DNA of 47,601 nucleotides from Actinomycetota bacterium. Lineage in GTDB: Bacteria > Actinomycetota > Thermoleophilia > Solirubrobacterales > 70-9. The stretch spans positions 1 through 47,601 of the forward strand of contig JAUPTY010000003.1 of NCBI GenBank assembly GCA_030917845.1, written 5' to 3'. Position numbers and translations under genes: made by a program. Positions 10,110 to 47,601 of the stretch are shown in pieces. Numbering within the stretch: the first letter of the stretch is position 1; every line of letters begins with the position of its first letter. The notes beneath the pieces were generated by a model that worked only from the letters and a program-made list of their open reading frames with translations, was not told the DNA's origin and did not search any database.

Positions 10110-10114
10110 AGATG

Positions 10115-10138
10115 GCGTCCCGGTCTACGCCGGGACGC
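10115..10138. terminator. Hairpin between convergent SRPBCC and GFA genes
   Basis: GCGTCCCGG-tctacg-CCGGGACGC; 6 nt after stop. Confidence 0.6.
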
Positions 10139-10201
10139 AACAGAAACCCGTCCGATCACGAGGTCCGCAAATGGATGATCGGACTCCGTATTCGGGAGGA
10201 T

Positions 10202-31868: not shown

Positions 31869-31974
31869 TTGGGTGACCTCCTGACTCGGGCCGCGACAGG
31901 CGCAATCTGTCGCTATCAAGCCCTTTCAGGAGGTCATTTTGCTAAATGGATCGGATGGAAACGGTGGATTCAGG
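30815..31974 (-). mobile_element. IS1380-family element, internally deleted (1160 bp)
   Basis: Perfect 13-bp TIRs CCTGAATCCACCG (30815-30827) / CGGTGGATTCAGG (31962-31974), 5-bp TSD CTAAG, IS1380-like transposase remnant. Confidence 0.85.
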
Positions 31975-45098: not shown

Positions 45099-45824
45099 TT
45101 GACTTACTCCGAATTACTAGAATCGCAGGTCGCTTTGCAGATCGAAGAATTCCTATTTTCCATTTCCGATGCCCTGCTCTGGCCAGTTCTGGTCTCGGCA
45201 CTGCTCGCCCTTGCCTGGTCTGTGATCGAGATCGGGATTCTCGCCGCGGAGCTCTGGCGCCGACGTTGGCGTTCGATCGGGGCTCTCGAGAACGCGGTCG
45301 ACCAGGCCGAGATTGACATTGCCCAAGGAGATCAGATCGGCGCGATCTCGGCGCTTTCGTCGGTTTCATGGAGCCGGCCAATGCGGGACACGATGCAGTC
45401 GATCGTCACTCTGCGGCCATCGCCCGACGCCGAGAACCGGATCGCCAAGCGCATGGCCGATTACGACTACACCTCGCTCAGGCGCCTCGAACGGACCCGG
45501 ATTCTGGTCCGCATGGGCCCCGCGCTCGGTCTGATGGGCACCCTGATCCCGCTCTCACCGGCCCTTGCCGGTCTTGCCGACGGCAACGTCACCGAACTGA
45601 CCGACAACCTGCGGGTTGCCTTCGGCGTGACCGTGGCCGGTCTGCTCACCGGTGCGCTCGCCTTTGCCGTCTCGCTGATCCGTGACCGCCTCTACGCCCA
45701 GGACTTCTCTGACGTTGAATACGCGGCCGCGAACCTCGCTCCCGACAAACACCTGGCCCAGCACTTCGTGCCCTCGACGGTCGAGCACGGCCACAGCACC
45801 CAGGTGTCGATGGGGAATCCCTGA
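45099..45824 (+). CDS. MotA/TolQ/ExbB-family proton channel protein
   Basis: N-terminal TM, cytosolic loop, RILVRMGPALGLMGTLIPLSPALAGLADGNVTELTDNLRVAFGVTVAGLLTGALAFAVSLIRDRLY. TTG start, uncertain. Confidence 0.85.
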   Translation: MTYSELLESQVALQIEEFLFSISDALLWPVLVSALLALAWSVIEIGILAAELWRRRWRSIGALENAVDQAEIDIAQGDQIGAISALSSVSWSRPMRDTMQSIVTLRPSPDAENRIAKRMADYDYTSLRRLERTRILVRMGPALGLMGTLIPLSPALAGLADGNVTELTDNLRVAFGVTVAGLLTGALAFAVSLIRDRLYAQDFSDVEYAAANLAPDKHLAQHFVPSTVEHGHSTQVSMGNP

Positions 45825-46216
45825 TGGCGAAAGTCACCGCTAAGGCCCGCAGCCGCGAGGACCGGGCGGGCGATCCGCTCGACGGCCTGGTCAATCTCTT
45901 TGACATCGGGATCATCCTCTCAGTGGCTTTCTTGCTGGCCGCGCTTTCCTCACTCAACCTGACCACCGAGGCCCTGACCGAAACCGATGCGACCAGTCAG
46001 GCCAACACGGTGCCAGCGGATTCGGTGATCACCAACCCCGACCAGCAGGCCGAGCAGATCACCATCGAGCCCGGCCAGGAAGTGGTTGGCCAGGGCGAAC
46101 CGATCGGCCAGCTCTACCAGCTCGAAGACGGCCGCACCATCCTCGTCAAACCCGCCGACGGCACCACCGGAGAATCAGGAACAACCGGCGTCACCGGCTC
46201 CACCGTTACCCCTTAA
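45824..46216 (+). CDS. DUF2149-like single-TM partner protein
   Basis: DPLDGLVNLFDIGIILSVAFLLAALSSLNLT; start overlaps exbB-like stop. Confidence 0.75.
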   Translation: MAKVTAKARSREDRAGDPLDGLVNLFDIGIILSVAFLLAALSSLNLTTEALTETDATSQANTVPADSVITNPDQQAEQITIEPGQEVVGQGEPIGQLYQLEDGRTILVKPADGTTGESGTTGVTGSTVTP

Positions 46217-46275
46217 GGCATCTGGCGGTTCATTCGTTGGTGGAGGGGCCCGGCGCGGTGCACCCGCCCTTCATC

Positions 46276-46505
46276 GTCGCTTCGCTCCCCATCCAGAGAT
46301 TCAGGCCAGGTACACCGCACCGGACCCTGAGGACCGTGTCGGTTGACGGTGCCGCAGGTTAGCTGTCGTCACGCTTACTGACTTGCGGCACCGTGGCGGC
46401 CGAGTTGCCCGGAGGGTTTTCAGGCGGGTTGCGGGGGGCGTGGTTTCCGGACCTCTGGATGGGGAGCGTAGCGACGGTCCGGGGGCCATACCCCCGCAAC
46501 CCGCC
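46276..46505. repeat. Structured convergent intergenic element with three nested/interleaved inverted repeats
   Basis: 23-nt IR (46276-46298 / 46453-46475, 1 mismatch), 11-nt IR (46346-46356 / 46384-46394), 15-nt IR (46423-46437 / 46491-46505), 7-nt inner IR (46447-46453 / 46476-46482). Confidence 0.8.
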
Positions 46506-46528
46506 CTCGCAGACCGGACCGACTGCAG

Positions 46529-47601
46529 TTAAGCCTTGAAGCGTCTGCGCCCTCGACCGCCGATGAAGCGAGTGATTGCGCTTACTGCCTTGTGGCGCTG
46601 CTCGGTGTAGGGGTACCAGAGGATCTCCGAAGGGAGCAGGGTCCGGGCGCTGACGATCGCCTCCGAGCGGCAGTACTTGCGGATTCCGTATTCACCGTTG
46701 CGGTAGCCGATTCCCGACTCCTTCCAGCCGCCCATCGGCAGGCCGGGAGCGAGCATGTTGAAGACGACGTCGTTGATGTTGACCGCACCCGCCTCGATCC
46801 GGCGGGCAACCTTCTCCGCCTTGCCGCGAGGGCCGAAGACCGAGGCCGAAAGGCCGTAGCGGGAATCGTTGGCCAGGCGGATCGCCTCTTCCTCGTCGGC
46901 CACCCTGGTCACGGTCACGACCGGACCGAAAGTCTCGTCCTCGACCACGGTCATTTCCGGGGTCACGTCCACCAGGACGGTCGGTTCAAAGAACTGGCCG
47001 GGGCCTTCGCCCCGCTTGCCGCCGGTCAGGACCCTGGCCCCGTCGGCGACCGCGTCATCGACCTGCTTCTCGACCTTTTCGAGCTGGGACATCATGGTCA
47101 TCGCGCCAACATCACAGGCGACGGTTTCGCCATCGGCACCCTGGGTGAGCTCCTCGACGTTCGCGGTAAGCCGGTCGACGAACTCTTCGTAAACGCCGTC
47201 CTCGACATAGATCCGCTCGACCGAAATGCACATCTGGCCGGAATTCAGCATGCCTCCCCAGGTCGCGGCGTTAGCGGCCCTTTCCATGTTCGCGCCCTCG
47301 AGCACGACCATCGGATCCTTGCCGCCGAGCTCCAGGCTGACCGGGGTCAGCGTCTCTGCTGCCCGGGCCATCACCTTCTTGCCGGTCACGTCGGATCCGG
47401 TGAAACCGACGAAGTCGGAATGGTCGATCAGGGCGGTCGCCGTCTCGGCGCCACCGTTAACCACTGTGATCACGTCCGGGCCGCCGATCTCGTCACGCCA
47501 GGCGTCGACGATCTCGTTCAGGCCGAGCGGGGTGATCTCGGAAGGCTTCAGGACCACGGCCGCGCCGGCCATCAGGGCCGGGATCGCATCACCTAGTGAA
47601 A
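46529..47601 (-). CDS. NAD(P)-dependent aldehyde dehydrogenase (N-terminus beyond window)
   Basis: SLGDAIPALMAGAAVVLKPSEITPLG...FTGSDVTGKKV...LELGGKDPMVV...NSGQMCISVERIYV...EDETFGPVVTV. Confidence 0.93.
   Translation of the reverse strand, partial: SLGDAIPALMAGAAVVLKPSEITPLGLNEIVDAWRDEIGGPDVITVVNGGAETATALIDHSDFVGFTGSDVTGKKVMARAAETLTPVSLELGGKDPMVVLEGANMERAANAATWGGMLNSGQMCISVERIYVEDGVYEEFVDRLTANVEELTQGADGETVACDVGAMTMMSQLEKVEKQVDDAVADGARVLTGGKRGEGPGQFFEPTVLVDVTPEMTVVEDETFGPVVTVTRVADEEEAIRLANDSRYGLSASVFGPRGKAEKVARRIEAGAVNINDVVFNMLAPGLPMGGWKESGIGYRNGEYGIRKYCRSEAIVSARTLLPSEILWYPYTEQRHKAVSAITRFIGGRGRRRFKA

What the first reader, a model, noticed from the sequence alone, without database searches (positions are those of the whole stretch)
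46217..46528. Highly structured convergent intergenic element with mutually exclusive pairings
A 15-bp stem (GGCGGGTTGCGGGGG / CCCCCGCAACCCGCC, 46423-46505) encloses a 7-bp stem (CCGGACC / GGTCCGG) whose apical loop, CTCTGGATGGGGAGCGTAGCGAC, is complementary at 22/23 positions to 46276-46298 upstream. A further 11-bp hairpin (ACGGTGCCGCA / TGCGGCACCGT) sits between. The arrangement allows either local hairpins or a long-range helix/pseudoknot, far beyond an ordinary terminator. It could be a structured RNA, a BIME-like repeat family or a hairpin mobile element.
Basis: partly seen in the sequence, partly recalled or inferred. Interest (0 to 1): 0.68.

Follow-up and report, generated by a model that had tools for sequence, protein, structure and literature searches.

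The report
Dispersed long-hairpin DNA repeat family
The structured patch between two genes is two back-to-back copies of a short hairpin-forming DNA repeat scattered through this bacterium and a few close relatives; its stem sequence changes freely while pairing is kept, and its tip always carries a tiny, exceptionally stable DNA hairpin, which suggests it works, and probably spreads, as a folded single strand.

Summary
The 312-nt gap holds two inverted copies (46246-46327 minus, 46424-46505 plus) of one dispersed hairpin repeat, called H here, plus an unrelated hairpin repeat between them. The '22/23 complementary loop' is H's conserved loop seen in opposite orientations. H has 14-18 copies in this Solirubrobacterales MAG, roughly 80 across eight genomes of one subclade, and none in ten other congeners; in six of these the two genes abut (empty site). 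Across 47 members the ~30-bp stem covaries (345 double-change cells against 110 shuffled). The tip keeps an invariant GAGC-GNA-GCGA. One strand is clearly the folding one (75 G-U against 4 A-C). GC-GNA-GC is the published, extraordinarily stable DNA minihairpin. All 12 two-copy sites tabulated are divergent, and hairpins of other families make BIME-like mosaics. No RAYT (Y1) transposase is found in carriers. Best reading: a REP/BIME-like non-autonomous mobile palindrome acting as folded single-stranded DNA with an unidentified enzyme. An RNA transcription-boundary role remains possible.

The parts
46246..46327 (-). H element 1: ~30-bp imperfect hairpin with class-1 apical loop; folding strand is the minus strand; its 3' tail faces the DUF2149 stop
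   Evidence: model R2 hit 2.9e-15; aligned in A2
46276..46297 (-). apical loop of H1, TCTGGATGGGGAGCGAAGCGAC on the minus strand; the GC-GAA-GC minihairpin is 46279-46285
46346..46394 (.). hairpin B (ACGGTGCCGCAGGTTAG/CTGACTTGCGGCACCGT), a second dispersed hairpin repeat lying just 5' of H1 on H1's folding strand
   Evidence: same hairpin 5' of H in G000 C116 and in G012 loci L125-L127
46424..46505 (+). H element 2: ~30-bp hairpin with class-1 apical loop; folding strand is the plus strand; its 3' tail faces the aldehyde dehydrogenase stop
   Evidence: model R2 hit 9.0e-15; 15-bp perfect outer stem
46454..46475 (+). apical loop of H2, TCTGGATGGGGAGCGTAGCGAC; the GC-GTA-GC minihairpin is 46466-46472
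45824..46216 (+). DUF2149 gene, upstream convergent neighbour
   Evidence: Pfam PF09919, E 3.5e-13
46529..47599 (-). aldehyde dehydrogenase gene, downstream convergent neighbour (runs off the contig)
   Evidence: Pfam PF00171, E 1.2e-100

Best explanation
The region is a BIME-like mosaic: two divergent copies of one dispersed palindromic repeat (H, about 82-105 nt) around a different hairpin repeat (B). SHOWN: H is a repeat family confined to one subclade of a Solirubrobacterales genus. Its stem is kept by compensatory change. One defined strand folds best (wobble and tandem G-A pairs lie on that strand). The tip always contains GAGC-GNA-GCGA or a lengthened form of it. H lies between ordinary chromosomal genes and, at the window's site, is absent with the genes abutting in outgroup congeners. 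INFERRED: H is a non-autonomous mobile element. When its region is single-stranded (for example during replication) the folding strand forms the long hairpin, capped by the very stable d(GCGNAGC) minihairpin, and a strand-specific ssDNA-processing enzyme recognises it and copies or moves it, as TnpA-REP does with REPs. That enzyme is not identified and is not a detectable Y1/RAYT transposase. Species-specific loop classes at shared sites would reflect repeated insertion or conversion between copies. Any effect on transcription of the neighbours would be secondary.
For: Copies: 14 in the own genome by loop core (mirror-pattern control 0) and copies in relatives; eight subclade genomes by covariance model. 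Structure: 25 members chosen by loop sequence alone give 23/30 pairs changed on both sides, 129 cells against 43 shuffled; 47 members give 92% of cells paired, 345 against 110. Strand: 75 G-U against 4 A-C in the loop-selected set, 133 against 10 in 47 members; the folding strand is more stable in 43 of 47, Wilcoxon p 1e-8. Tip: 46 of 47 have a GNA triloop, with stems of 2 or 4 bp and a covarying pair; GNA loops closed by at least two G-C pairs are the published extraordinarily stable DNA minihairpins, Tm 78 C for GCGAAGC (PMC4686876). Placement: empty sites in six outgroup congeners, gap -11 to 21 nt; all 12 two-copy sites tabulated are divergent; neighbours checked are ordinary chromosomal genes. 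In co-directional gaps the folding strand is sense in 15 and antisense in 9 cases (counted), so orientation does not follow transcription. TnpA-REP binds its folded ssDNA REP strand-specifically (PMC8266576).
Against: No transposase or HUH gene is tied to H: PF01797 is absent from every carrier genome, though carriers are incomplete MAGs. No insertion polymorphism between near-identical genomes and no target-site duplication was seen. Fifteen orthologous gaps carry H in two or three species, which also fits old, vertically kept elements; at the rpmE promoter in G000 and G009 the flanks align right up to the stem base. G-U wobbles and tandem G-A pairs fit RNA as well as ssDNA.
Confidence: 0.5

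Rival explanations
1. H is an RNA-level transcription boundary: when read in the folding direction the long hairpin ends or blocks transcription just before it runs into the next gene, so divergent pairs insulate both sides of a gap.
For: The element's 3' tail faces the nearer gene in 44 of 55 tabulated cases; the folding strand carries the G-U pairs; tabulated pairs are always divergent; long hairpins without a U-tract are plausible terminators in actinobacteria (general knowledge).
Against: No terminator-like or promoter-like site in the gap. In co-directional gaps the folding strand is sense in 15 and antisense in 9 cases. The facing-the-nearer-gene bias partly follows from divergent pairing and a longer 5' leader. 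The invariant 2-bp GNA tip is notable for DNA stability. Related genomes have different hairpins or none at the same sites.
Confidence: 0.27
2. H is a conserved functional structured RNA (small RNA or cis-regulator) at defined loci.
For: Strong covariation and an invariant loop core; 15 orthologous gaps shared between species.
Against: No Rfam family reaches its gathering score. Loci are next to unrelated ordinary genes. Loop class changes at most orthologous sites and the window's site is empty in outgroups. Two copies often sit in one gap.
Confidence: 0.1
3. Neutral palindrome turnover: arms are kept complementary by template-switch correction during replication, with no selected function.
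For: Template switching at quasi-palindromes restores complementarity without selection (general knowledge); the same gaps hold many unrelated hairpins.
Against: Does not explain the invariant tip, the 75:4 wobble asymmetry on one strand, dispersal with conserved leader and tail, or divergent pairing.
Confidence: 0.08
4. Bistable RNA switch: local hairpins compete with the long 46276-46298/46453-46475 helix, as first proposed.
For: The helix exists and is part of the + strand minimum-energy fold.
Against: It follows automatically from two inverted copies of one loop. Several other pairs have different loop classes and single copies are common.
Confidence: 0.03

Closest known systems
REP/BIME elements with TnpA-REP (RAYT), E. 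coli and Pseudomonas type
   Same: Dispersed extragenic palindromes, inverted dimers, mosaics with other hairpin types; logic of one folded, strand-specific single strand (PMC8266576, PMC3733652)
   Different: H is 82-105 nt with a ~30-bp stem, not 20-40 nt; the conserved unpaired motif is in the apical loop, not a GTAG/CGTC foot; tens of copies at most; no Y1 transposase in carrier genomes
CGTC-tagged REPs (CGTC-1 to CGTC-4)
   Same: Palindromic dimers without a dedicated transposase (PMC3733652); the complement of H's loop happens to contain CGTC
   Different: CGTC REPs have 8-9-bp stems, 4-5-nt loops and an unpaired CGTC at the foot; H has none of these
Large bacterial palindromic repeats such as ERIC/IRU (general knowledge)
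   Same: About 100-130 nt, intergenic, near-palindromic
   Different: H conserves its tip while its stem changes by compensation; no sequence link was found or specifically tested
Integron attC and IS200/IS605 end hairpins
   Same: Function through one folded single strand (discussed in PMC8266576)
   Different: No integrase or Y1 gene linked; conserved bases at the apex; attC boxes were not searched for
Synthetic d(GCGNAGC) minihairpins
   Same: Identical GC-GNA-GC tip (PMC4686876)
   Different: Studied as short oligonucleotides; here the invariant tip of a natural repeat family

Membership tests
REP/BIME | Dispersed, multi-copy, extragenic palindromes | tested here: met
   14-18 copies in the own genome, lying between genes
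REP/BIME | Short palindrome (14-40 nt; RepRanger default at most 32 nt, loop at most 11 nt) | tested here: not met
   82-105 nt, loop 17-26 nt
REP/BIME | Conserved GTAG or CGTC tetranucleotide at the foot | tested here: not met
   foot is CTGCAGGG...CCCCTCGA or variable; conserved GAGC..GCGA is in the loop
REP/BIME | Inverted dimers and mosaics with other hairpin units | tested here: met
   12 of 12 tabulated pairs divergent; hairpins B, P1, P2 next to H
REP/BIME | Cognate RAYT/TnpA-REP (Y1) gene in the genome | tested here: not met
   PF01797 only in G004, which lacks H; carriers are incomplete MAGs
REP/BIME | Strand-specific processing of folded ssDNA | not testable with these tools
   only indirect: G-T against A-C asymmetry
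Rfam RNA family | Score above a family's gathering threshold | tested here: not met
   only sub-threshold hairpin models of eukaryotes and viruses
Intrinsic terminator | G+C-rich hairpin followed by a T-run | tested here: not met
   0 found in 46100-46700
Covarying structured nucleic acid | Compensatory changes beyond shuffled and slid controls | tested here: met
   shows a folded single strand, not whether it is RNA or DNA

The most novel reading that the evidence does not exclude
A new class of mobile palindrome, with a ~30-bp covarying stem and an invariant d(GCGNAGC) minihairpin as strand-specific recognition tip, is moved or converted as folded single-stranded DNA by an enzyme that is not a Y1/RAYT transposase.
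Probability: 0.3. Interest if true: 0.72.

Novelty: new variant of a known kind. Interest (0 to 1): 0.5.

Why it matters
It is a clean natural case in which stem sequence is free, pairing is selected, and the only fixed bases form a minihairpin known from chemistry for its extreme stability as DNA. That makes the old question of whether REP-like repeats act as DNA or as RNA directly testable, and points to an unknown enzyme that spreads palindromes in genomes without RAYT.

Tried and rejected
(1) Single structured RNA or switch: rejected as the main reading, because the complementarity comes from two inverted copies of a dispersed repeat and is not kept at other two-copy sites. (2) RAYT-driven REP in the strict sense: PF01797 is absent from carriers. 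(3) Phage or plasmid origin: no match in IMG/VR, PLSDB or INPHARED. (4) Wider taxonomic spread of the exact core: the 11 hits outside Solirubrobacterales lie in no long hairpin and are near the number chance gives. (5) Genome-wide enrichment of the bare 11-mer GAGCGNAGCGA: modest in a few carriers, absent elsewhere in the family, so the motif is informative only inside the long hairpin. (8) Bias check: the 47-member set was collected with G-T pairs allowed on the folding strand, so the wobble asymmetry rests on the 25-member set chosen by loop sequence alone (75:4). (9) Genes around elements were called with a home-made codon-usage script, so distances to start codons are approximate. (10) Pair counts and the 15:9 sense/antisense count were tabulated by hand.

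Full report
OBSERVATION. The gap is the 312 nt between the convergent stops of a DUF2149 gene and an aldehyde dehydrogenase gene. No promoter-like or terminator-like site is found there and no Rfam family reaches its threshold.

WHAT IT IS. A search of the window's own MAG with the region gives many partial matches and one near full-length second copy. The shared core is the loop GTCGCTNCGCTCCCCATCCAGAGG: 14 copies in the own genome with at most 3 mismatches, none for the mirror pattern. Each copy is the apical loop of a long hairpin whose stem differs between copies but is paired. The window holds two such elements (H) in opposite orientation, 46246-46327 (-) and 46424-46505 (+).

STRUCTURE IS SELECTED. 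In 25 copies chosen only by loop sequence, 23 of 30 stem pairs show changes on both sides, 129 such cells against 43 in shuffles, and sliding the 3' partner by one column roughly halves the pairing. In 47 members from seven genomes, 92% of cells pair and 345 cells show double changes against 110 shuffled. The mismatches have a strand: on the strand that reads CTCTGGATGGGGAGCGNAGCGAC, 75 cells are G-U and 4 are A-C; in 47 members 133 against 10, and that strand folds more stably in 43 of 47. Most own-genome copies also carry a tandem G-A step (5'-TGAA-3' on both arms) on the same strand (my reading). One strand is therefore the one that folds, as RNA or as ssDNA.

THE TIP. Loop classes differ (TCTGGATGGGG, TCGGAATGGGG, TCCGGAATGAGG, TTATGGGG, TTCGGGGG, GGATAGTG), but all 47 share GAGC...GCGA around a triloop, GNA in 46. 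The closing stem is GC, or GCGC or GCCC in longer versions, with a covarying pair. GNA loops closed by two or more G-C pairs are the published extraordinarily stable DNA minihairpins, Tm 78 C for GCGAAGC (PMC4686876). From memory, the RNA version is much weaker; I could not check that here. This leans towards DNA.

DISTRIBUTION. Covariance models find H in eight genomes of one subclade (own, G001, G009, G010, G011, G012, G013, G015) and in none of the ten other congeners. In 151 genomes of the order only single weak hits appear outside the genus, in one other genus of the family. A looser cut shows long hairpins with a similar CGAGC-GNA-GCGAG tip in two other genera. There is no trace in viral, phage or plasmid collections.

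PLACEMENT. At the window's site six outgroup congeners have the two genes abutting (-11 to 21 nt), while G010 and G012 carry H of other loop classes there, and G001, G009, G011, G013 and G015 carry other sequences, mostly other hairpins. A second site also shows different hairpin repeats in most species. Fifteen orthologous gaps carry H in more than one species, mostly with different loop classes. At the rpmE promoter the flanks align up to the hairpin base in G000 and G009 while the hairpin bodies are typical of each genome. All 12 two-copy sites I tabulated are divergent. H is often preceded by hairpins of other families (B, P1, P2), which makes mosaics. Neighbours checked are ordinary chromosomal genes.

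MECHANISM. Dispersal, empty sites, divergent dimers and mosaics are the anatomy of REP/BIME elements. Strand asymmetry with a fixed tip fits recognition of one folded single strand, as shown for TnpA-REP (PMC8266576). In co-directional gaps the folding strand is sense in 15 and antisense in 9 cases, so orientation does not follow transcription, which weighs against an mRNA-borne element. I therefore favour a non-autonomous mobile palindrome working as ssDNA. The enzyme is unknown: the Y1 domain is absent from all carriers. Steps shown: repeat family, selected pairing, folding strand, tip, empty sites. Steps inferred: mobility, ssDNA as the acting form, the enzyme.

CLASSIFICATION. H works like a REP/BIME but fails its size, foot-motif and RAYT tests, so I file it as a new variant of a known kind and not as a REP.

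Noticed in passing
46346-46394; L134 about 1081-1127; L125-L127: Hairpin B (GTGCCGCAGGTTT...AACCTGCGGCAC) is a separate dispersed hairpin repeat lying a few tens of nt 5' of H in two genomes.
   Followed up: partly
10110-10201: Another convergent gap holds a GGCGTCCCGG hairpin and a CCCGTCCGATCA...TGATCGGACTCCG hairpin; the latter recurs in L135, L141 and L209, so it is a further repeat family.
   Followed up: no
L096 4207, L131 4064, L133 3840; L125, L133 8808, L205: Two more hairpin families next to H or at its sites: P1 (GGGTCGGGTAGGC... with a GGCGGCTGAATGCCGCC inner hairpin) and P2 (CCCTCCCAAAG...CTTTGGGAGGG).
   Followed up: partly
L100 4027 and 4126 (G009 C2): An inverted pair of ~24-bp hairpins of an unrelated family whose 19-nt loops are exact reverse complements, the same two-copy anatomy as in the window.
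   Followed up: no
L192, L193, L194, L197 (other genera of the family): About 30-bp hairpins with tips like CGAGC-GNA-GCGAG, possibly distant relatives of H; L195 and L196 are still longer hairpins with ~40-nt loops.
   Followed up: partly
31869-31945: Long hairpin GGTGACCTCCTGA...TCAGGAGGTCA followed by TTTT, an ordinary-looking strong terminator.
   Followed up: no
gaps such as L134, L088, L098, L141: AACTGCAAGTCGGCGAGCTTCGCCCCGCCTCCCAG and variants recur right after stop codons or in gaps of several genomes, another gene-end repeat.
   Followed up: no
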